A stretch of DNA of 38,036 bases. Origin: Planctomycetota bacterium (lineage in GTDB: Bacteria > Planctomycetota > Planctomycetia > Pirellulales > Pirellulaceae). The stretch is taken from positions 1 to 38,036 of the forward strand of contig JAPOIJ010000026.1 of assembly GCA_029979005.1 (NCBI GenBank), given 5' to 3'. The position numbers and the translations under genes are program-made. Below the pieces are notes generated by a model. That model saw nothing but the letters and a program-made list of their open reading frames with translations. It was not told the origin of the DNA and ran no database searches. Shown piece after piece: positions 8,801 through 21,637 of the stretch. How positions within the stretch are numbered: position 1 is the stretch's first letter; each line of letters opens with the position of its first letter.

Positions 8801-10048
8801 ATGATCAATCGACGTCATTTTTTACGCGGAACCGGAGTAACCCTTGCCTTGCCATTTCTCGCAAGCCAAAAATTACCCGGTGTTTCATCCTCGCGTTCAG
8901 CTAAACCGCAACCGCGAAGAATCGTATGCATTGGCAATCATCTTGGGTTTTGGCCAGGTGGATTTTTTCCAGAGGGGGAAGGGGGTAATTCCCAACTTGG
9001 TGCCACTCTCAATCCCATCAAGAACCAGAGGAATGACTTTACTGTCTTTTCGAACTTAGATCACGGCACTAGCGGCGGGCACAAAGCGGTGCATACGTTT
9101 TTGAGCGGAATTCGCAAAGAAGAGGCGGCGGGTTTTCCTGAAAAAAATAGAACACTGGATCAAGCGGCTGCTGAACACTGCGGAAGTGCAACTCGATTCT
9201 CGTCCATCAACGCAGGACTAGGTGAAGGCACCAGCATGTGTTGGACAAGGACGGGAATTTGCATCCCCCCCGTCAATAACCCGGCAAAAATGTTCGATGC
9301 CCTGTTTGTTGAATCAGATGCAGCTTCCCAAAAAATCCAGCGATCGAGATTACAGCATCAAAAAAGTGTCTTAGATGCTGTTAACGATTCAGCTCGACGC
9401 ATTGGGAGTCGTCTAAACGCCACCGATCGCAACAAATTGGATCAATATTTGACTTCGGTTCGTGACGTGGAACGACGCGTCCAGATGTCAAACCTTTGGC
9501 TCGACCGCCCCAAGCCCAAACCGCCAATCGAACCAGTCCTCGAAAAAGAAAGAATGCATATCGAAGAAATCCCGCTCTTCTATGACTTACTGACACTGGC
9601 ACTACAAACCGATTCCACGCGCGTTGCCACATTCGAAATCCCCATGGCTTTCAAAACTTCGGAACTGAACGTTGGAAGTTACCACGGACTTTCCCACCAC
9701 GGAAAAGAAGCGGGGCGACTAGAACAATTAGCAGTTGTTGAAGCTTACCTGATGAAGCAGTTTGGATACTTCCTCAATAAACTTCGCGAGTCTGAGATTC
9801 TTGACCAGACACTCGTCATTCATGGAAGTGGAATGGGAAATGCTTCCAGCCACAGCAACAAAAACCTACCCGTGATTCTTGCGGGGGGTGGCCTCAAACA
9901 TAAGCAACACATCGCCTGCCCAGCCGAAGACCATAAACGAGTACCGCTCTGCAACTTGTGGCTGTCAGCTTTGCAATGGTTTGGACTCGAAACCGAACGA
10001 TTTAATAGAAGCAGCGGGACCTTTTCAGACTTGGAGTTTCGCACATGA
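8801..10048 (+). CDS. DUF1552 family protein, Tat-type export signal
   Basis: Planctomycete-type DUF1552 protein of 415 residues; the biochemical role of the family is not known. The ATG at 8801 is chosen because it gives the usual start MINRRHFLRG, a twin-arginine-like signal followed by a hydrophobic stretch ending near LASQ. The frame continues seven codons upstream to a TTG at 8780, which is unlikely. Family landmarks include GNHLGFWPGGFFPEG near residue 45, FSNLDHG, DRNKLDQYLTSVRDVERRV mid-protein, and SYHGLSHHG with HGSGMGNAS toward the end. It is followed, with a four-base overlap, by the DUF1592-type haem protein, the common partner of DUF1552 in planctomycetes. Here the pair sits directly behind sulfatases. 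Confidence 0.9.
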   Translation: MINRRHFLRGTGVTLALPFLASQKLPGVSSSRSAKPQPRRIVCIGNHLGFWPGGFFPEGEGGNSQLGATLNPIKNQRNDFTVFSNLDHGTSGGHKAVHTFLSGIRKEEAAGFPEKNRTLDQAAAEHCGSATRFSSINAGLGEGTSMCWTRTGICIPPVNNPAKMFDALFVESDAASQKIQRSRLQHQKSVLDAVNDSARRIGSRLNATDRNKLDQYLTSVRDVERRVQMSNLWLDRPKPKPPIEPVLEKERMHIEEIPLFYDLLTLALQTDSTRVATFEIPMAFKTSELNVGSYHGLSHHGKEAGRLEQLAVVEAYLMKQFGYFLNKLRESEILDQTLVIHGSGMGNASSHSNKNLPVILAGGGLKHKQHIACPAEDHKRVPLCNLWLSALQWFGLETERFNRSSGTFSDLEFRT

Positions 10049-12516
10049 TGCAATTCGCCGGCCTTTTACTCGCGATCGCGGTGACGACTCTTTCTACCTC
10101 CGCGTTTGCAATCGACGAACGAATTCAGAAGTTTACTGAAACCTATTGCAACCAATGCCATGGTAGGACTCAGCAGAAAGCTGGTCGGCGTTTTGACACG
10201 TTGCCCCAAACAATCGAGACGATTGGTGAAATAGAACGTTATCAAGAAATTCTTGACCAGCTGAACCTTCAATCCATGCCACCAGAAGGGGAACGGCGTC
10301 CCACTGCCTCGGTTCAACTGGCGATGATTGAACATCTGACGGAGCGAATTTCCGCGGCCCTCCAGAAATTAAAAAGCGAGGGAGGACACAGTGTTCTCCG
10401 CCGCATCAATGCCTGGGAATACCAACAAACGATTGGAGATTTACTCGAATTAAACGTGGACGCATGGAACCCAGCCGCAAATTTCCCAACCGACGAAAAA
10501 GTAAATGGCTTCGATAATAATGGGCAGCATTTGGTAACCTCCGGTATTTTACTCGAACATTATCTAGCTGCGGCAGAGGAAGCGATCGCCCGGGCAACCC
10601 AATTTGGCGATCGCCCGGTCACACAAAAATTAACACAAAAGTCACCCTTTTATTTTAACGACAAGCAAAACAAGGATTTACCAAAATTATTTCAGGTAGA
10701 TCGATTTCGATTTATTCCCGAAACGCCTTACACCGACCTTTATGGCCGTCATTACCGCGGAGGGCACATCGGATTTCTCCCTACCGCACGAGGCGGTTTA
10801 AAACATAGTGGCATCTATACGATCCGCGTACGTGCCGCTGCAGTTGATCGCATCCACAACTACGGAAAAGCGCTTGGAGATTTCCGAAGCAACGACCCGC
10901 TTGTGCTTGAAATAGCTTCCGTCGATCGCAAAGGCAGCGCGGAGAGTACCGGCAACGTCTCCAAAATGATCCCGTTAAAACGCGTGGAACTGATAGACAA
11001 CACACCACAGTGGATTGAATGGACCGGCTATCTCGAGGCTGGATTTGAACCGGAAGTTCGCTTTCGAAATGGCCCGATTGCCGCAAAACGTATGGTTCGA
11101 TTACTTTCAAACTTAGGCGAGGAGTACGAAGAGTTTCGGCCATTCGTCGACATGAAACCCGGCCTGGAAAAAGGGCATGGCGTTCTCAAAGCCTACCGGG
11201 GGCCCAAACTTCGAATCTGGGAAATTGAGGTGGAGGGGCCAAAGGTAACCCACTGGCCACCTAGAGGTCATCAGAAACTTTACGGCAATTTGAATCTTGA
11301 CCAACTCGATCGCGATTCAATCCGCCAGAGACTCCACTCATTTGCTGAAATAGCTTTCCGCCGACCTGTTTCATCCATTGAATTGGAACCTATCCAATCA
11401 CTCGTCGCTTCAAAAATTGACACCGGCCTGCCGCCACTTGCCGCAGCTCAACTCGGGTTCCAAGCTATTTTGTGCTCGCCTGGGTTTCTGTATCTCGATG
11501 AAGGGCAGGGGGAGCTCGATGATTACGCACTGGCTTCCCGACTATCTTATTTTTTATGGTCCTCGATGCCGGATTCCGAACTTCTCAAACTAGCTGCCCA
11601 AGGAAAACTTCGCGACAAAACTGTCTTGCGGGGACAGATCACGCGAATGATCAACGACCCCAAATCCAATCGATTTGTCAGCCATTTTATCCGCCGTTGG
11701 CTCGAACTCGACAACATTGGCGAAATGCCCCCGTCAGAAGAGTTCCTGCCTTATTACCGTGACAATCTCGAATGGGCAATGCGTTCGGAGACAGAGACTT
11801 TTTTCCGCCACACGCTCGACAACAATCTTCCGGTAAGTGAATTCCTCACCGCCGATTACTCCTTTCTCAATCGCGAACTTGCCGCCCATTATGGAATCAA
11901 CGGGATTGAAGGGGGGCATCTACGCCGAGTTTCATTACAGGAAACCCCTCGCCGCGGTTTGATCGGGCACGGTCTATTTTTGACCGCCTCTGCCAATGGC
12001 GTTGATACCTCTCCCGTCGTTCGAGGCGTCTATGTACTCGATAAAATCCTAGGCTACCAACCGCCCCCCCCACCGCCGGACGTCCCCGAAATTGAACCTG
12101 ACATCCGCGGTGCTGCAACGATCCGGGACGAACTAGCGAAACACCGGAATGTTGCAACCTGTGCTGAATGCCATCGCAAAATTGATCCCCTGGGTTTTGC
12201 ACTCGAAAACTTCAACGCAATTGGTGAGTGGCGCGAACAATATGAAAACAAACTTCCAATTGATCCCTCGGGGCAACTTCCCCTCGGACGTGAGTTCTCC
12301 TCTTTCTCCGGCTTCCGTGATCAAATTAAAGAGAAAGACGAGCAATTCTCAAAATGCTTGACTGAAAAACTGCTTACGTATGCGATCGGGCGAGAATTAA
12401 ATGCCGGAGATCGCCCCGAAGTTAATACAATCCTTGAAACGCTGAAAAACCAATCGCTCGGCTTTCAGGAATTGATCCAGCTAATTTGTGAAAGCTCAAT
12501 TTTCAGAAATAACTAA
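10045..12516 (+). CDS. DUF1587/1595/1592/1588/1585 protein with cytochrome-like motifs
   Basis: Large exported planctomycete protein (823 residues) with the typical domain order of this group. It has a signal peptide (1-22, ending AFA) and an N-terminal CNQCH haem-type motif (Cys35-Cys38-His39). DUF1587 lies at about 118-185 (INAWEYQQTIGDLLELN), followed by an inserted beta-rich region that may bind carbohydrate (about 190-400), and DUF1595 at about 420-485. DUF1592 is at about 490-620 (ASRLSYFLWSSMPD), DUF1588 at about 633-735 (RRGLIGHGLFLTASANGVDTSP) with a second CAECH motif at 706-710, and DUF1585 at 752-823. The start overlaps the preceding stop (ATGA), indicating translational coupling with DUF1552. 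The two CxxCH motifs suggest an extracytoplasmic c-type cytochrome, but electron partners are unknown. Confidence 0.93.
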   Translation: MMQFAGLLLAIAVTTLSTSAFAIDERIQKFTETYCNQCHGRTQQKAGRRFDTLPQTIETIGEIERYQEILDQLNLQSMPPEGERRPTASVQLAMIEHLTERISAALQKLKSEGGHSVLRRINAWEYQQTIGDLLELNVDAWNPAANFPTDEKVNGFDNNGQHLVTSGILLEHYLAAAEEAIARATQFGDRPVTQKLTQKSPFYFNDKQNKDLPKLFQVDRFRFIPETPYTDLYGRHYRGGHIGFLPTARGGLKHSGIYTIRVRAAAVDRIHNYGKALGDFRSNDPLVLEIASVDRKGSAESTGNVSKMIPLKRVELIDNTPQWIEWTGYLEAGFEPEVRFRNGPIAAKRMVRLLSNLGEEYEEFRPFVDMKPGLEKGHGVLKAYRGPKLRIWEIEVEGPKVTHWPPRGHQKLYGNLNLDQLDRDSIRQRLHSFAEIAFRRPVSSIELEPIQSLVASKIDTGLPPLAAAQLGFQAILCSPGFLYLDEGQGELDDYALASRLSYFLWSSMPDSELLKLAAQGKLRDKTVLRGQITRMINDPKSNRFVSHFIRRWLELDNIGEMPPSEEFLPYYRDNLEWAMRSETETFFRHTLDNNLPVSEFLTADYSFLNRELAAHYGINGIEGGHLRRVSLQETPRRGLIGHGLFLTASANGVDTSPVVRGVYVLDKILGYQPPPPPPDVPEIEPDIRGAATIRDELAKHRNVATCAECHRKIDPLGFALENFNAIGEWREQYENKLPIDPSGQLPLGREFSSFSGFRDQIKEKDEQFSKCLTEKLLTYAIGRELNAGDRPEVNTILETLKNQSLGFQELIQLICESSIFRNN

Positions 12517-12561: not shown

Positions 12562-13572
12562 CTACTTTATTTCGTTTGGTGTCAGAACATTCAATTTGAG
12601 ATCCGTCAAAAAACTACTTATCTCCAGCAGCGTTGATTCCGTTTGCGAAACAACCAAGATTCCATTGACCAACCGGATCCTCCCGGACCCCATCGTTTGC
12701 TCCCAACTATCCGGTGAAACCATCGTGGTCACAAGATCCAGCAAAGTATGTTCACTTGATGGCTTCACTTGACGCTTCTCAGCTCGCGCTTGAGCTTGCA
12801 CCATGGCGACCAGTTGACTCAACTTTTGCTCTAATAACTTTGTATCACTCCCCTCGGAATCCTGCCGAAGCCCTGAAGATGCTGATTGAAGTGCAGCTAA
12901 CTGAGGAGGCGCTGGCTGAATTGCGAACATACCACCCGCACGGTTACCTTCGACACCAGATTTTCGCACACCGCCAACTCCAGACTCGTTTGCACCACCC
13001 TCGATGAGCCCGTTTCCTAAAGCGTTGGGCGATGCTAAACCGCTGGGCGATGTTTCCGGCAAAGAAATCAATAGTTTACGGCAATCAAACATTTTGATGC
13101 GATGAAACTTTGGATCCAATGCGTCATCGAGAGAAATTATCTTCACCACCCCACCACTAATTACGTACGCCGCGTTATGCGACTCCAGCATTAATGCCAA
13201 CGCTTTGTTTAATGGCATGGCGTTTATTTGGAATGTAATCGGTTGCTTCCCCGTAAGACTGTCATCCATCGCCGACGAAGTGAGTACAATATTCAAACCG
13301 GTTTTTTTCTCAAGCTGTTCAATCACATCGGAAAATGATTGCTCCGCCAAATCAAAAGAAAGCACTAACTTCATCGCCTCTTCTGCAGCAGCCGAGAGCG
13401 ACGTATCTTGCGAAGCAACCGACGGCGCTGCTGCCGGCTCCTGAAGCGGTTGATCCTGAATTTTGGCGAGAGCTCGCTTGGGACCACCCAACCGCGAATT
13501 CTCCGGCCACATTTCCATGACCAACATGGCAACAAAAAAACAGCCAACAACTGAAATATTAGCCAAGCGCAT
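12562..13572 (-). CDS. Membrane-anchored/secreted STN-domain protein
   Basis: A protein of about 336 residues with an N-terminal hydrophobic signal or anchor (ISVVGCFFVAMLVM). A secretin/TonB short N-terminal (STN) domain follows at about residues 66-150: SFDLAEQSFSDVIEQLEKKT, LTGKQPITFQINAMPLNKAL. The C-terminal part has VTTMVSPDSWEQ followed by GILVVSQTESTLLEISSFL, a repeat common in planctomycete STN proteins. No secretin pore domain is present, so it is not itself a secretin; the role is unknown. Two ATGs are adjacent; the second (13572) is preferred, being six bases from a strong GGAGG at 13579-13583, whereas the first (13575) is only three bases away. Convergent with the sulfatase operon. 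Confidence 0.78.
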   Translation of the reverse strand: MRLANISVVGCFFVAMLVMEMWPENSRLGGPKRALAKIQDQPLQEPAAAPSVASQDTSLSAAAEEAMKLVLSFDLAEQSFSDVIEQLEKKTGLNIVLTSSAMDDSLTGKQPITFQINAMPLNKALALMLESHNAAYVISGGVVKIISLDDALDPKFHRIKMFDCRKLLISLPETSPSGLASPNALGNGLIEGGANESGVGGVRKSGVEGNRAGGMFAIQPAPPQLAALQSASSGLRQDSEGSDTKLLEQKLSQLVAMVQAQARAEKRQVKPSSEHTLLDLVTTMVSPDSWEQTMGSGRIRLVNGILVVSQTESTLLEISSFLTDLKLNVLTPNEIK

Positions 13573-13583
13573 CATCCACCTCC

Positions 13584-14724: not shown

Positions 14725-16050
14725 ATGGCTCAGGTTCCGGAAATCGAATTAAAAGACATTTTGCTGTCAAACAGTTCGTTTGGTCCCAACGAGATCACTT
14801 TCATTCTCACGAAAGTCTGTAACGACTACTCCCAATTCCCGAACTTAAAAGAAGTAACGGGGGTCTTGGAATCACAGCTTGAGAGAACACCTGCCGCATC
14901 GGTTCGTCTTGGTGTCTGCCAATACATGATCGGCAATTACGAAACTGCCATCGCCACTCTCGAAAATGCAGATGGCGGCGCATTAGCTTATTTTTATCAG
15001 GGCAAGAGCCATTTTGCGCTTGAAAACTGGGATAAAGCGATTGAGTGCTATGAATCGGCACAGCGAGCTGGCTACAACGGCGACCACTGCCAAATTGCAA
15101 TCGCCGAAACAAAGCGTCTCTCAAAAGACCTTACCGGTGCGATGACAATCCTCGACAACATGTTCGGACCGATCGAACAAACCGCTGAATACCTTTACCA
15201 GCGTGGAGCGACTATCGCTGCCATGAGCGACAATCCGGATGAAGTCTGCAAACTTTATGAACGAGCGGTCGAGCTGGAGGACACGCATCCCGGGGCATTG
15301 TTCGGACTCGCACTGGAGAATGACCGTCGCGGAAATGACGAGCGAGCGATCGAGCTTTATCAACGTGCCGCAGCATCATTTCCAACCAACGTGGGAGCGT
15401 TGCTAAATCTTGGGCTGATCTACGAAGATCACGATCAATTCGAGCGAGCGACCCGATGCTACGATCGCATTCTGGAATCACATCCGACTCATGATCGGGC
15501 ATTGCTCTACCGCAACGATTCTGTGGCATCAATGGATGAGCATTACGACCATGACCGCGAGAAAGTTCGTCAGCAAATCGCTGGCGTGATGAGCATTCCA
15601 ATTGCTCAATTTGAACTTTCTGTTCGCAGCCGCAACTGCCTTCAGAAGATGGGAATTCTCACCCTTGGTGATCTCTGCAAAGTTTCTGAAATGGAATTGC
15701 TGAACAGTAAGAACTTCGGAGAAACATCTCTAGTTGAAATTCGCGAGATGATGACCAACAAAGGACTGATGATTGGACAACTAGCTCACCAAAAAGATGA
15801 AGCGGATGAGCCGATCGACACCAGCCAGTACAGTCCTGAAGAGCAAATGCTTCTCGATCGTCCGATCTCTGACCTCAATCTTTCGGTTCGTGCCCGTAAG
15901 TGCATGACTCGTTTGGGGCTCGCAACCATTGGCGAACTCGTCAGAAAATCGCAGGATGACTTGTTAGAGTGCAAAAACTTCGGCGTAACCAGCCTCACCG
16001 AAGTCCGAGAGAAACTTGTGCAGGTTAATTTAAGCCTTCGCGGCGAGTAA
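14725..16050 (+). CDS. TPR protein with two RNA polymerase alpha-CTD-like domains
   Basis: A cytosolic 441-residue protein that is not the RNA polymerase alpha subunit. Residues about 60-270 hold tetratricopeptide repeats (for example NWDKAIECYESAQRAG and NDERAIELYQRAAASFP). Two helix-hairpin-helix modules closely resembling the RpoA C-terminal domain follow, at about 290-350 and 378-438. In E. coli alpha numbering, Arg265 corresponds to Arg301 and Arg389. The Asn268 position is Asn304 in the first copy but Lys in the second. The NxGxxSLxEI signature is kept as NFGETSLVEI and NFGVTSLTEV, though Lys298 is Thr in both. These residues contact UP-element DNA in alpha, so DNA or polymerase interaction is plausible but unproven. 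GAGG lies seven bases before the ATG. Related architectures are, as I recall, annotated in other planctomycetes. Confidence 0.88.
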   Translation: MAQVPEIELKDILLSNSSFGPNEITFILTKVCNDYSQFPNLKEVTGVLESQLERTPAASVRLGVCQYMIGNYETAIATLENADGGALAYFYQGKSHFALENWDKAIECYESAQRAGYNGDHCQIAIAETKRLSKDLTGAMTILDNMFGPIEQTAEYLYQRGATIAAMSDNPDEVCKLYERAVELEDTHPGALFGLALENDRRGNDERAIELYQRAAASFPTNVGALLNLGLIYEDHDQFERATRCYDRILESHPTHDRALLYRNDSVASMDEHYDHDREKVRQQIAGVMSIPIAQFELSVRSRNCLQKMGILTLGDLCKVSEMELLNSKNFGETSLVEIREMMTNKGLMIGQLAHQKDEADEPIDTSQYSPEEQMLLDRPISDLNLSVRARKCMTRLGLATIGELVRKSQDDLLECKNFGVTSLTEVREKLVQVNLSLRGE

Positions 16051-16083: not shown

Positions 16084-16112
16084 GGCCCGCGAAACCGCGG
16101 GTCTTTTTTTTC
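16084..16112 (+). terminator. Rho-independent terminator
   Basis: An eight-pair stem, GGCCCGCG (16084-16091) with CGCGGGTC (16096-16103) including one G-U, has a four-base loop and nine Ts. It lies 34 bases after the stop of the TPR/alpha-CTD gene and separates it from tgt. Confidence 0.92.
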
Positions 16113-16181: not shown

Positions 16182-17309
16182 ATGAACAAAGATGGTTTTC
16201 AATTCGAAGTCCTGCATACGGACAAACACTGTGGTGCTCGACTGAGCAGACTAACCACACCTCGAGGCACCATCGACCTGCCAACGTTCATGCCTGTTGG
16301 TACGTGCGCTACCGTCAAAGGCCTGACGACCGGTTTGGTAAAATCGACCAATGCCCAAATTATCCTTGGCAATACTTACCACCTCGCGCTGCGTCCTGGC
16401 TCCGAACTGGTTCAAGAGTTCGGCGGTCTGCCAAAATTCATGGGCTGGGATGGGCCAATGCTTACCGACAGTGGTGGCTTCCAGCTCTTCAGCCTCGCGC
16501 AACTAACCAAAATTACAGAACATGGAGCTACATTCCAATCACACATTGACGGCTCAAAAATGGAATTGACCCCGGAAAGGAGCGTGCAAATCCAACAGGA
16601 ACTCGGAGCTGACATTGCGATGGTGCTTGACCACGTCATTGAACTGCCCAACCAAAAAGAAACGATTATCGACGCCATGGAACGCACCATTCGCTGGGCC
16701 AAACGTTCCCAGGACGCTCACAACCTCGATTCGCAAGTTCAATTCGCTATTGTCCAGGGTGGGCTCGATCCGGCACTGCGAGTGCAATGCGCGGAACAAT
16801 TGATCGACCTTGATTTCCCGGGTTACGCAATCGGCGGCTTAAGTGTCGGTGAACCGCCAAGTGAAATGTATGCGATGCTCGATGTGACCTGTCCCGTTTT
16901 ACCTGAAAAAAAACCAAGATATCTGATGGGAGTTGGAACACCTGAAGATTTAATTGAGGGGGTTAAACGCGGAGTCGACATGTTCGATTGTGTGATGCCC
17001 ACCCGAAATGGGCGTAATGCGATGGCCTTCACCGACGAGGGAAGAATCAAGATCCGCAACGCTATCTACGAAAGAGACCCTCGACCGTTACAGGATGATA
17101 TTCAGACTCCCTATTCACACCTCAGCCGTGCTTATCTGCGTCACCTATTCAAGGCGAAAGAAATGCTGGGTCCGATCCTGCTCTCTCTCCACAACCTGGC
17201 CTACTACCAGCAGTTGATGCGAAAGGCGCGGGAAGCGATTGCGAACGACTGCTTTCTCGATTTCCATGCCCAACAAATGTCCGGCTGGCACCCAATTTCG
17301 CCGCGCTAA
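16182..17309 (+). CDS. tgt: Queuine/preQ1 tRNA-guanine transglycosylase, zinc site lost
   Basis: Exchanges guanine-34 of GUN-anticodon tRNAs for preQ1 or queuine. The 375-residue length matches the family. Catalytic Asp96 (TDSGGFQLF) and nucleophile Asp269 (FDCVMPTRNGRN) are intact, as are GGLSVGE (219-224) and the RYLMGVG motif. Two oddities are visible. Where bacterial enzymes have CxCxxC zinc ligands before SRAYL, residues 303-315 contain no cysteine, although the fourth ligand His337 (SLHNL) remains. The DEC motif of the base pocket is replaced by Asp150-His151-Val152; valine at this Cys position is also found in eukaryotic queuine-specific enzymes. A good AGAGGG ribosome-binding sequence precedes the ATG. 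It precedes yajC and secDF, a common bacterial gene order. Confidence 0.93.
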   Translation: MNKDGFQFEVLHTDKHCGARLSRLTTPRGTIDLPTFMPVGTCATVKGLTTGLVKSTNAQIILGNTYHLALRPGSELVQEFGGLPKFMGWDGPMLTDSGGFQLFSLAQLTKITEHGATFQSHIDGSKMELTPERSVQIQQELGADIAMVLDHVIELPNQKETIIDAMERTIRWAKRSQDAHNLDSQVQFAIVQGGLDPALRVQCAEQLIDLDFPGYAIGGLSVGEPPSEMYAMLDVTCPVLPEKKPRYLMGVGTPEDLIEGVKRGVDMFDCVMPTRNGRNAMAFTDEGRIKIRNAIYERDPRPLQDDIQTPYSHLSRAYLRHLFKAKEMLGPILLSLHNLAYYQQLMRKAREAIANDCFLDFHAQQMSGWHPISPR

Positions 17310-17713: not shown

Positions 17714-18121
17714 ATGATAAACTTTTACAACACTTGCTGGTATTTTCTTGCCCAGACGCAAGTTCAAACATCAGAGGCTCCGGCCGTTGACGGGGGTCCT
17801 GCAGAAGGGGTGGCAAATAATACGCCGAGTCTCTTCGACAGCTGGATGTTTCCGGCATTGATGGCTGTGATGCTGGTTTACTTCATCATGATGGCTCGGC
17901 CGAAAAACAAAGCTCAAGCCAAAACTTCGGATTTACTTGCCAACTTGAAAAAGAACGACAAAGTCGTCACGGCTGGTGGCATTCTTGGAACCGTTGTAAA
18001 TCACCGCTCGGATGCCGAATACGTCACCTTGCGAGTCGATGAAGCAAGCAACTCGAAAATGCAGATACTGGCGAAATCAATCGTTCGCGTAGTATCCGAT
18101 GAAGACGGAACAGATAGTTGA
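17714..18121 (+). CDS. yajC: Preprotein translocase accessory subunit YajC
   Basis: A small single-pass inner-membrane protein (135 residues) that associates with SecDF and aids Sec-dependent export. One membrane helix (about 45-61, MFPALMAVMLVYFIMMA) is followed by the family signature RPKNKAQAKTSDLLANLKKNDKVVTAGGILGTV, then a small soluble domain. The N-terminal part before the helix is longer than in E. coli. The start at 17714 has an AGG five bases upstream. It lies between tgt and secDF, about 100 bases before secDF, the typical order for the Sec accessory operon. Confidence 0.93.
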   Translation: MINFYNTCWYFLAQTQVQTSEAPAVDGGPAEGVANNTPSLFDSWMFPALMAVMLVYFIMMARPKNKAQAKTSDLLANLKKNDKVVTAGGILGTVVNHRSDAEYVTLRVDEASNSKMQILAKSIVRVVSDEDGTDS

Positions 18122-18220: not shown

Positions 18221-21200
18221 ATGTTAGAGTTCAGCTCCAACGCTTCCCTTTTGGCCCAAAATACTGCGCAAGCTGCTGAAAACAATGTTCCCTTTATTGA
18301 AACGGGATTTTTTGTTTTTCTATTGCTAATTGCTGCAGTCGTTTTAGGCTTCTTTGCCGCAAAATACATTTCTTCGGGACTAAAAGTCGCCGAGTACCAA
18401 GGCAGAATGTCAATCGTTTTGATTGCTGTACTTGTCGCCTCATTAATGATTTGGGCGAAATGGCCGCCTAAACTGGGCGTGGATCTTCGAGGCGGTATCA
18501 ACATGATTGGCTCGCTCAATCTTGACGCGTTTCTCGATGAGGATGGGGCCGGAAAACGCCCCGAAGCAGCCGACATCATTCCCGCGTTGGTTCGCAGAGT
18601 GAACCCGTCGGGCACCAAGGAAATCATGATCCGCCCGTTGGGTGCCGACAAAATCGAAGTCACAATCCCTACGGTTGAAGACGCGGAAGCTGACGGTATC
18701 TGGAAACGACTTGTCGAAGCCGGAAAACTCGAATTTAGAATTTTGGCGCGAGACGCGCAGGCTTTTAAACTCGAACGAGACGCAGCCAAGGCACAGGCCG
18801 CCGCGGGCAATCGAAGCCGTAAAGTTCAGGATGAAGTCGACGGGAAAAAACAGACGGTTGCCGTTTGGGTCGCCCTCGCTCGAGTCGTTCAACCTGAAGA
18901 TGCACCGAACGAAATCGTACCCTTTAAATTTGTCCCGCAGCGAAGCGATCTTGTACGCGACAAAGCATCCGGCAAGATTCTCGATCTTTCCACTTGGTCT
19001 GCCTCTGGCTCCTTGGATGCGGATTCACAGGGCGCTGAATTCGCAAAATGGTGTGCGGATCAGGGTGTTCGCACACCCCAAATCCTCGTGATTCAACCGG
19101 AAGACGACCAAAACGTTGAAGGCGAGCATCTGGCGAGCGTTAGCTCTGCTATGGACGAACGAGGCCGTGGAAGCGTCGCGTTTAAGACAACGGCTGTCGG
19201 CAGCTCAAAAATGGGTATGCTCACTCGAATGAACATTGACCGGCCTATGGGAGTCGTTCTCGATGGCCAATTGCACTCCGCACCTAACATTCAATCTGCG
19301 ATCTACGCGAATGGCCGAATTACCGGTGAATTCACGCCTGAGGAAGTCTCCGAACTGATCATTACACTCGAAAGCGGTAAGCTTGATGTGGCGTTGAACA
19401 AATCACCCATCAGTCGTGACTTCATTGAATCGAACCTTGGTAAACAGCTGCTTGAACAAGGATTCCTGGCAATCGGTTGCTCACTGGTCCTTGTTCTGAT
19501 TTTCATGATGTTTTACTACCGTTTCGCGGGAATCGTTGCGACCGCCGCGTTGTTACTGAACCTCGTTCTCATCCTCGCACTGGTGATGGCAATTAACCAA
19601 CCGTTCACCCTAACAGGGCTGGCTGGCTTGGTTCTAACCGTCGGTATGTCCGTGGATGCGAATGTGCTGATCTTCGAACGGATCCGGGAAGAACTCGACC
19701 GCGGCGCGGCCTTGAGAATGGCAATTCGCAACGGTTTCGATAAGGCGACCACCACCATTATTGATGCGAACGTAACAACCTTGATCACCGCTGTTGTTCT
19801 TTACGTGATTGGAACTGAGCAAATCAAAGGATTCTCAGTCACTTTGATTCTCGGTATTTTGATGAGTATGTTCACTGCCATTTATGTTTCTCGATTGATA
19901 TTTGATATCTTCGAGCGTCGACGATGGCTAACGCACCTCAACATGACGAGAATTCTCGAGCGGAAGCAGTTTGATTTCCTAAGTAAGGTGAGTCTTACGG
20001 GCATCATGTCCTTTGCATTGATCGTCGGAGGGCTCAGTAGCGTATTCCTCTTGGGGCCAAAGATCTTAGATCATGATTTGCGTGGCGGTTCGACGGTTCG
20101 AATGGTCTTTAATGATGCACAAGATGTCGAACTCCTTCGGAAAGAACTGGATGATCTTAACGAAATGCATAACGGCGAGAGCGTCGAATTTTCAGTAACC
20201 GGCTTTCAGCAGGGCGGCGACGGTGAGAAAAACACTGTATTTCGGGTCGACAGTAACCTACCGGCCTACGAAGGCCCGCCTCAGGAGAAGTTTGATGAAT
20301 TGGCAGATATTCTGGCACGTGTATTCAAAGGACGCCTGAAACTGAACCACGTAGAAGTCGTTAATTCTCCTGCAAGCTCAAATCCGACCTCAACACCGGC
20401 AAAACCTGCTGAGACAAATACGGAAGCGCCTGTAAAAACCGGTTTGAATTGGGAGGCGGGAGGTCTGACACCGTTGGCGAGTGCTGCGTCGTCATTCATG
20501 CTCACCTACCAGGAAGCAGAAAAACAGGAACCTGCAACTCCTCCAGCCGAAGGAGCTGAGCAAGAGAAGCCGGAGCAAGAAAAACCGGAATCGAATGCAA
20601 CTGAACCGCCGGCAGCCGAACCTAAACCGGAAACACCCAAACCGGAAACGCCTAAAACGGATCCGTCGAATGCGGAGCCTGAAGTAACTTCTCCACAGAA
20701 AGAAGAAACCAACGAAGACGACAACCAGTTCAAGCCAGAAACTCCGACCGACAATCAGATTGCCAAGCCCGAGTCGGTTACCCGCAGCCTTAAAGTCACG
20801 CCTGGGATTTCTGGAAAATCACTGATCAACATGTTGATTGAAGCGTCAGAAACTGCGGAATTAGAGTTGGAAGAAGAGCAGATCTTTGTCGACTCAAGCG
20901 ACGTTGAGCAAGACGAATCTGCTGCCTCGACCGTTTCCGAAAACTGGGAAGTCACGATGGAGGTCAATCGGGCCGAAGAGGCTGACGCGATCATTGACGC
21001 GTGGAGCCAAAAGCTGAACGAAACGCCTTACTTCCCGACCACGAGTAAAGTGGGTGGTCAGATTGCCGGCAAAACTCAGGTTCAGGCACTAGTCGCGATT
21101 TTCGCCAGTCTGCTTGGAATCATCGCCTACGTTTGGATTCGCTTCCAAAATGTTGCCTTTGGACTGGCGGCGGTGATTGCTTTGATTCACGACGTATTAA

Positions 21201-21637
21201 TTGTGCTCGGTGCAATCGCTATTAGCCATTGGATTGCCGGTGCACTTGGATTCCTGGGGATCGTCGAGTTTAAGATCAGCCTCGAAATTATTGCGGCACT
21301 CCTGACCGTTATCGGTTACTCACTTAACGACACGATTGTTGTATTTGATCGAATCCGAGAAGTTCGGGGCAAACGAACCGAGATTACTGCCGACATTGTT
21401 AACGCCAGTATTTCACAAACTCTCAGCCGTACTATCCTGACTTCGGTAACCACCTTTATCGTGGTCTTCATCCTCTACTGTTTTGGTGGCGACGCGATTC
21501 ACGGATTTGCATTCGCATTAGTAATCGGCGTCCTCGTCGGTACCTACAGTTCAATCTTCATCGCTTCACCAGCACTGCTTTGGTTGATGAATACGGTTGG
21601 CTTGAACCCGGGGGAAGTAGACCCGGAAACGGCATAA
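18221..21637 (+). CDS. secDF: Fused protein translocase subunit SecDF
   Basis: SecD and SecF in one 1138-residue chain; the complex uses the proton gradient to pull exported proteins out of the SecYEG channel. SecD: an extra N-terminal helix (about 28-48), then helix 63-79 and the LGVDLRGG motif (85-92). A large periplasmic domain follows, then five helices with ANVLIFERIREE. SecF: helix near 595, DHDLRGGST (about 614-622), a periplasmic domain, then helices with LNDTIVVFDRIREV. The SecF periplasmic part contains an unusual low-complexity Pro/Glu-rich segment (about residues 715-850, with PETPKPETPK repeats). AGGA lies nine bases before the ATG. Its downstream terminator is at 21704-21736. 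Confidence 0.95.
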   Translation: MLEFSSNASLLAQNTAQAAENNVPFIETGFFVFLLLIAAVVLGFFAAKYISSGLKVAEYQGRMSIVLIAVLVASLMIWAKWPPKLGVDLRGGINMIGSLNLDAFLDEDGAGKRPEAADIIPALVRRVNPSGTKEIMIRPLGADKIEVTIPTVEDAEADGIWKRLVEAGKLEFRILARDAQAFKLERDAAKAQAAAGNRSRKVQDEVDGKKQTVAVWVALARVVQPEDAPNEIVPFKFVPQRSDLVRDKASGKILDLSTWSASGSLDADSQGAEFAKWCADQGVRTPQILVIQPEDDQNVEGEHLASVSSAMDERGRGSVAFKTTAVGSSKMGMLTRMNIDRPMGVVLDGQLHSAPNIQSAIYANGRITGEFTPEEVSELIITLESGKLDVALNKSPISRDFIESNLGKQLLEQGFLAIGCSLVLVLIFMMFYYRFAGIVATAALLLNLVLILALVMAINQPFTLTGLAGLVLTVGMSVDANVLIFERIREELDRGAALRMAIRNGFDKATTTIIDANVTTLITAVVLYVIGTEQIKGFSVTLILGILMSMFTAIYVSRLIFDIFERRRWLTHLNMTRILERKQFDFLSKVSLTGIMSFALIVGGLSSVFLLGPKILDHDLRGGSTVRMVFNDAQDVELLRKELDDLNEMHNGESVEFSVTGFQQGGDGEKNTVFRVDSNLPAYEGPPQEKFDELADILARVFKGRLKLNHVEVVNSPASSNPTSTPAKPAETNTEAPVKTGLNWEAGGLTPLASAASSFMLTYQEAEKQEPATPPAEGAEQEKPEQEKPESNATEPPAAEPKPETPKPETPKTDPSNAEPEVTSPQKEETNEDDNQFKPETPTDNQIAKPESVTRSLKVTPGISGKSLINMLIEASETAELELEEEQIFVDSSDVEQDESAASTVSENWEVTMEVNRAEEADAIIDAWSQKLNETPYFPTTSKVGGQIAGKTQVQALVAIFASLLGIIAYVWIRFQNVAFGLAAVIALIHDVLIVLGAIAISHWIAGALGFLGIVEFKISLEIIAALLTVIGYSLNDTIVVFDRIREVRGKRTEITADIVNASISQTLSRTILTSVTTFIVVFILYCFGGDAIHGFAFALVIGVLVGTYSSIFIASPALLWLMNTVGLNPGEVDPETA

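What the first reader, a model, noticed from the sequence alone, without database searches (positions are those of the whole stretch)
14725..16050. TPR protein carrying two RNA polymerase alpha-CTD-like domains
The sequence shows a TPR array joined to two separate copies of the alpha C-terminal domain, without the alpha N-terminal domain. Arg265 of E. coli alpha is matched in both copies, and the NxGxxSLxE signature is kept, so the modules may still bind UP-element-like DNA or transcription factors. A protein offering alpha-CTD surfaces on a TPR scaffold could compete with or recruit RNA polymerase. The second copy has diverged at the Asn268 position (Lys), suggesting different roles for the two. 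The gene has its own strong terminator and sits between tRNA-Thr and tgt.
Basis: partly seen in the sequence, partly recalled or inferred. Interest (0 to 1): 0.65.

Follow-up and report, generated by a model that had tools for sequence, protein, structure and literature searches.

The report
Planctomycete protein bearing two polymerase domains
Almost every planctomycete bacterium sampled carries a protein that joins a protein-binding scaffold to two copies of the RNA polymerase alpha subunit's DNA-binding domain, with the DNA-touching residues kept, and its job is unknown.

Summary
The 441-residue ORF at 14725-16050 has a TPR array followed by two genuine RNA polymerase alpha-CTD modules (PF03118, 143 bits against a cut-off of 23.8) and no alpha-NTD. 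The predicted folds match solved alpha-CTDs. It is not an oddity of this genome: a profile finds it, nearly always once, in 142 of 148 sampled genomes of the class and 232 of 246 of the phylum. The modules form groups separate from each other and from RpoA, so both probably predate the phylum's radiation. In 147 unique proteins, Arg265 and Glu302 (E. coli numbering) are invariant in both modules. Module 1 keeps the DNA-contact set as the phylum's own RpoA does, plus Glu261, a sigma contact in E. coli (recalled). Module 2 usually has Lys or Arg at 268 and is missing in one genus. Best reading: a core, RNAP-independent alpha-CTD carrier that binds AT-rich upstream DNA and tethers a TPR-bound partner near promoters. 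DNA binding and polymerase contact are inferred, not shown. Eight literature searches for it found no description. Absence outside the phylum could not be tested properly.

The parts
14725..16050 (+). TPR-(alpha-CTD)x2 gene, 441 aa
14890..15585 (+). TPR superhelix region (about residues 56-287); repeats 151-287 are the better conserved part of it
15589..15786 (+). alpha-CTD module 1 (residues 289-354): E297, R301, N304, C305, N330, G332, T334, S335, E338
15787..15852 (+). acidic linker (residues 355-376), low model confidence, length varies among relatives
15853..16047 (+). alpha-CTD module 2 (residues 377-441): R389, K392, C393, N418, G420, T422, S423, E426
16084..16111 (+). hairpin plus T-run, terminator-like
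   Evidence: (sequence)
16182..17309 (+). tgt, recurrent downstream neighbour
17714..18121 (+). yajC
18221..21637 (+). secDF

Best explanation
It is a core planctomycete DNA-binding adaptor that carries two alpha-CTDs free of RNA polymerase. Module 1 is expected to insert R301 (the Arg265 equivalent) into the minor groove of AT-rich, UP-element-like DNA. Because it also keeps Glu261, it could sit beside sigma region 4 as the RpoA alpha-CTD does. Module 2, on a flexible tether, adds a second and more basic DNA (or activator) contact at a neighbouring minor groove. The TPR groove holds a conserved partner protein and so places it at promoters, or helps or competes with RpoA's own two alpha-CTDs there. 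Shown: domain content, predicted fold, presence in nearly all sampled genomes of the phylum, separate grouping of the two modules, conservation of the DNA face. Inferred: DNA binding, promoter location, sigma or RNAP contact, existence of the TPR partner.
For: Both modules score as alpha-CTD. Module 2 matches E. coli 1lb2_E (Z 12.4, rmsd 0.7, 66 aligned); the region with module 1 (model residues 8-84) matches Caulobacter 9zum_B bound to AT-rich DNA (Z 12.4, rmsd 2.0, 73 aligned). Of 147 unique proteins, R265 and E302 are 147 of 147 in both modules. In module 1, N268 is 146 of 147, C269, N294, G296, T298 and S299 are 147 of 147, and E261 is 146 of 147. Position 298 is also T in 31 of 31 phylum RpoA, so module 1's face equals the local RpoA's. 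In 39 phylum-spread representatives the eight DNA-contact positions of module 1 average 0.997 conservation; random sets of eight average 0.789 and reach it in 5 of 20000 draws. Module 1 is the most conserved segment of the protein (0.77). Modules 1, 2 and RpoA-CTD each lie on one side of a branch (SH-aLRT 94, 87, 96). The gene is in 142 of 148 class genomes and 232 of 246 phylum genomes. Linker length varies, 17-38 among the 147 and 45 to 74 in three outliers, as for a tether. Three of three genomes looked at in one genus lack module 2 and end in a basic tail, while keeping module 1.
Against: There is no experiment and no complex model. Conservation of the DNA face could reflect a protein ligand on the same surface; positions of the hydrophobic core (list recalled) are nearly as conserved in module 1 (0.96), and the random-set control includes them, so it does not separate DNA binding from fold. 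Module 2 departs from Asn268 in 144 of 147, and in the 39 representatives only R265, E302 and three leucines stay at 95% or more. The TPR part and linker are acidic (net -20 and -6), which does not favour DNA binding by the protein as a whole. No RNAP gene turned up as a recurrent neighbour among the families identified (many neighbours were not identified). The upstream alignment was poor and showed no shared operator.
Confidence: 0.5

Rival explanations
1. A DNA-architecture or repair adaptor: the alpha-CTDs serve only as minor-groove binders and the TPRs bring a nucleoid, recombination or segregation partner; RNA polymerase is not involved.
For: DNA face kept. In 5 of 20 spread-out loci ruvA lies just downstream, directly in 4 and behind ruvC in one; ruvA, ruvB and ruvC were Pfam-tested in single loci.
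Against: That cluster (ruvCAB, queH, tgt, yajC, secDF) resembles a common bacterial gene order (recalled), so position says little; in the window ruv genes are not adjacent. Glu261 (146 of 147 in module 1) is not needed for DNA binding alone (recalled).
Confidence: 0.25
2. A protein-binding decoy: the modules present alpha-CTD surfaces to activators or sigma and titrate them away from RpoA; DNA binding is incidental.
For: E286 and E261 of module 1 (146 of 147 each), positions used for protein contacts in E. coli (recalled), are kept.
Against: In module 1 the eight DNA-contact positions average 1.00, whereas the sigma and activator sets average 0.78 and 0.68 and the remaining positions 0.66.
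Confidence: 0.13
3. An RNA- or ribosome-linked factor using the HhH-like modules on RNA.
For: Neighbours tgt and queH act on tRNA modification (roles recalled); the gene occupies the position that yebC has in the usual cluster (recalled), while yebC itself is present in 55 of 59 genomes.
Against: The modules are alpha-CTDs proper rather than generic HhH domains; no RNA-binding family is listed.
Confidence: 0.07

Closest known systems
RNA polymerase alpha subunit C-terminal domain (PF03118; E. coli RpoA)
   Same: Sequence family, predicted fold, minor-groove residues; the window genome's own RpoA-CTD is 39% and 42% identical to modules 1 and 2.
   Different: No alpha-NTD; two copies in one chain; carried on a TPR scaffold; module 2 usually has Lys/Arg at 268.
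Stand-alone alpha-CTD small proteins (NCBIfam NF005841/PRK07758; the 122-aa ORF in L004)
   Same: alpha-CTD without alpha-NTD; NF005841 matches below its cut-off (43.7 against 115 bits); the L004 protein scores 62 bits for PF03118.
   Different: Single module, no TPR.
TPR superhelix proteins, for example the OGT TPR domain 1w3b
   Same: Foldseek's best hits with the full model are TPR solenoids.
   Different: C-terminal alpha-CTDs; no enzyme domain.

Membership tests
RNA polymerase alpha-CTD domain (PF03118) | Profile score above curated cut-off, each module | tested here: met
   73.8 and 78.8 bits against 23.8
RNA polymerase alpha-CTD domain (PF03118) | Fold of solved alpha-CTDs | tested here: met
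   Predicted tandem model; top rows Z 12-13, 35-39% identity; most rows cover module 2, row 7 covers module 1. The tool warns that Z under about 13 can be a common arrangement for helical bundles
RNA polymerase alpha-CTD domain (PF03118) | DNA-contact residues (R265, N268, C269, N294, G296, K298, S299, E302; list recalled) | tested here: met
   Window module 1: all but K298, which is T as in 31 of 31 phylum RpoA. Window module 2: also Lys at 268
RNA polymerase alpha-CTD domain (PF03118) | Binds UP-element DNA or activators | not testable with these tools
   needs EMSA or ITC
RNA polymerase alpha subunit (RpoA) | alpha-NTD assembly domain and equivalog score | tested here: not met
   No alpha-NTD family listed; TIGR02027 124.2 against 227.8 bits. 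A separate rpoA is on contig C5
TPR protein | TPR repeats above cut-off, solenoid fold | tested here: met
   TPR_2 73.3 against 27 bits; Foldseek TPR hits
RNA polymerase alpha-CTD carrier in trans (works like) | Physical contact with RNAP or sigma | not testable with these tools
   complex prediction and pull-down not available

The most novel reading that the evidence does not exclude
Planctomycetota have a second, polymerase-independent pair of alpha-CTDs, in effect a one-chain mimic of the alpha-dimer's two CTDs, as a core transcription factor of the phylum, through which a TPR-bound partner is placed at upstream promoter DNA next to sigma region 4.
Probability: 0.3. Interest if true: 0.85.

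Novelty: new variant of a known kind. Interest (0 to 1): 0.6.

Why it matters
alpha-CTD is generally treated as a part of RNA polymerase (recalled). A nearly universal gene in the sampled Planctomycetota that carries two of them without the polymerase part would mean that promoter upstream DNA in this phylum is read by an additional player. How Planctomycetota regulate transcription is poorly known (recalled), and this gene gives a single, testable entry point.

Tried and rejected
Rejected: chance or generic HhH domains. RpoA paralogue: no alpha-NTD, score below cut-off. Recent domain capture: the three domain groups each lie on one side of a branch. Plasmid cargo: of 67 plasmid records with a match, 0 cover 80% of the full protein. 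The phage collection was searched with the C-terminal stretch only: 9 records match, 4 of them under an RNA polymerase alpha annotation and the other 5 in records without annotation.

Led nowhere: promoter scan, 0 sites. The upstream alignment came out poor, partly because I cut the stretch by a rough anchor. Foldseek with the full model showed only TPR-type solenoids among the 50 rows listed. Ten literature searches were made. Eight sought the protein or its architecture; judged by titles and abstract starts, none of the papers listed describes it, and none of those was opened. sought essential-gene studies; sought named alpha-CTD determinants and found nothing, so the roles of residues 261, 265 and 286 are recalled. 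PMC10632474 was seen as outline and passages only; its supplementary gene list could not be opened, so essentiality of an orthologue is unknown to me.

Not reached: genomes of other phyla. The one genome-contig scan listed its best 80 of 564 confirmed relatives; by record title these are planctomycetes except two called only 'bacterium'. Presence outside the phylum is therefore open.

Rows dropped: from 170 loci with a match, identical proteins were merged to 148, then L192 (an RpoA) was removed, leaving 147. The 147 lean towards Pirellulales; the 39 spread representatives (L051-L070 less one duplicate, and L157-L176) are the fairer sample. The tree used 24 of 147 for each module and 28 of 32 RpoA.

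Full report
Observation. ORF 14725-16050 (+) encodes 441 residues. Pfam finds TPR repeats and two RNA_pol_A_CTD stretches, 143 bits in total; the modules score 73.8 and 78.8 bits singly. phmmer of the C-terminal stretch against PDB sequences returns 54 distinct sequences at E up to 1, all RNA polymerase chains, nearly all named alpha. The protein has no alpha-NTD family and misses the rpoA equivalog cut-off. The window is contig C32 of a 5.06-Mb, 322-contig assembly. Its nearest named relatives (95-99% identity) are metagenome-assembled genomes titled Mariniblastus sp., Pirellulaceae or Planctomycetaceae bacterium. The genome has its own rpoA on C5 and a small alpha-CTD protein on C132.

Structure. 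AlphaFold2 on a 13-row alignment gives mean pLDDT 81.9, a helical repeat array and two C-terminal helical modules, with low confidence in the linker. A second model of the tandem, 48 rows, has pLDDT 81.6 and pTM 0.45, so the placement of the modules relative to each other is not defined. Foldseek matches alpha-CTD chains, for example 8y5t_A2 (rmsd 0.5 over 64 columns), 1lb2_E and 9zum. VIA-align 2 gives Z 12-13 in its top rows, nearly all on module 2, with module 1 at row 7; the tool warns that such Z alone can be a common arrangement for helical bundles, so the fold claim rests on Z, 35-39% identity and the profile scores together.

Distribution. Of 60 close genomes (own included), 52 have a near full-length match at 50-100% identity, 2 have partial matches (G013, G043) and 6 only RpoA-like matches. 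With a profile at E up to 1e-20, partial matches counted, the class sample has it in 142 of 148 and the phylum sample in 232 of 246; among assemblies at least 90% complete and at most 5% contaminated, 133 of 136 and 132 of 134 (the samples share some genomes). Nearly all have one match. In the class sample 6 have two: two split over contigs, three split by an insert, and G167 with two full copies. PF03118 occurs exactly three times in 44 of 59 phylum genomes, which fits RpoA plus two here; 9 have more and 6 fewer.

Evolution. I took 147 unique proteins, 39 of them spread over the phylum. In a 76-row domain tree (24 of each module, 28 RpoA including E. coli), module 1, module 2 and RpoA-CTD each fall on one side of a branch (SH-aLRT 94, 87, 96). 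The alignment is short, 45 of 72 inner branches are open, and four module 2 rows are long-branched. The two-module architecture is therefore likely, not certainly, ancestral to the sampled phylum. One genus, 3 of 3 genomes looked at, lacks module 2 and ends in a lysine-rich tail; two genomes of another family keep both modules after a shortened TPR part; three genomes have linkers of 45 to 74 residues.

Residues. In E. coli numbering (functional roles recalled), module 1 keeps R265 (147 of 147), N268 (146), C269, N294, G296, S299 and E302 (147 each), and has T at 298 (147), as do 31 of 31 RpoA of the phylum. It keeps E261 (146) and E286 (146). Module 2 keeps R265 and E302 (147 each), N294 and G296 (142 each), S299 (141) and C269 (125), but has K (131) or R (11) at 268. 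In the 39 representatives module 2 has K 23, R 11, N 3, Q 1, S 1 at 268. The DNA-contact set is conserved beyond random sets of positions in module 1 (5 of 20000 draws reach it), module 2 (143) and RpoA (2). That control compares with all positions, core ones included; the core list averages 0.96 in module 1 against 1.00 for the DNA set and 0.66 for the rest. It does not by itself separate DNA binding from fold. Module 2 is more basic (median net charge +3 against 0).

TPR part. The repeats nearest the modules (151-287) are better conserved than the N-terminal ones; F193, A208, Y212, N228, L229, E234, A242, A259 and D265 are the same in 39 of 39. That suggests one conserved partner, not identified.

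Neighbourhood. Of 20 other loci spread over the phylum, 10 have tgt downstream within the fetched stretch, 9 of these with yajC and secDF. RuvA lies just downstream in 5 by homology, directly in 4 and behind ruvC in L066 (Pfam-tested in L063 and L066). A SpoIID-like gene occurs in 8 (Pfam-tested in L060 and L063). In L066 the order is this gene, ruvC, ruvA, ruvB, queH, SpoIID-like, tgt, yajC, secDF; ruvC and ruvA there are Pfam-tested, the others by homology. That resembles the usual cluster with this gene where yebC often stands (recalled); yebC itself is present in 55 of 59 genomes.

Interpretation. Sequence and predicted fold establish a conserved alpha-CTD pair outside RNA polymerase. Because module 1's DNA face matches the phylum's own RpoA and Glu261 is kept, I favour binding of AT-rich upstream DNA near sigma, with the TPRs tethering a partner. 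A purely DNA-architectural role is the main rival. I tested neither at the bench. Eight literature searches for the protein found nothing on it, but most papers of subscription journals are not in that library. Databases may well list it as a TPR or alpha-CTD-containing protein (recalled).

Noticed in passing
L004:1456-1824 (-), own genome contig C132: Small stand-alone alpha-CTD protein of up to 122 aa (62 bits to PF03118); similar short open frames of about 95-165 aa appear for some 20 relatives in the cut match list.
   Followed up: partly
L066 and L063: The TPR-alpha-CTD gene stands in the place usual for yebC (recalled) at the head of a ruv-queH-tgt-yajC-secDF cluster; yebC is still present in 55 of 59 genomes.
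   Followed up: partly
L062, L063, L064, L066 (tested: L063:10900-12105; also L060:8520-9821): A SpoIID-domain protein (PF08486) sits between this gene and tgt in 4 loci; 4 more loci have it without tgt in the stretch.
   Followed up: no
L209, L210, L211: One genus lacks module 2 and carries a lysine-rich C-terminal tail instead.
   Followed up: partly
window 10045-12516 and 12562-13575: Upstream genes encode a planctomycete cytochrome/PSD-domain protein and a protein with a weak secretin N-terminal (STN) match.
   Followed up: no
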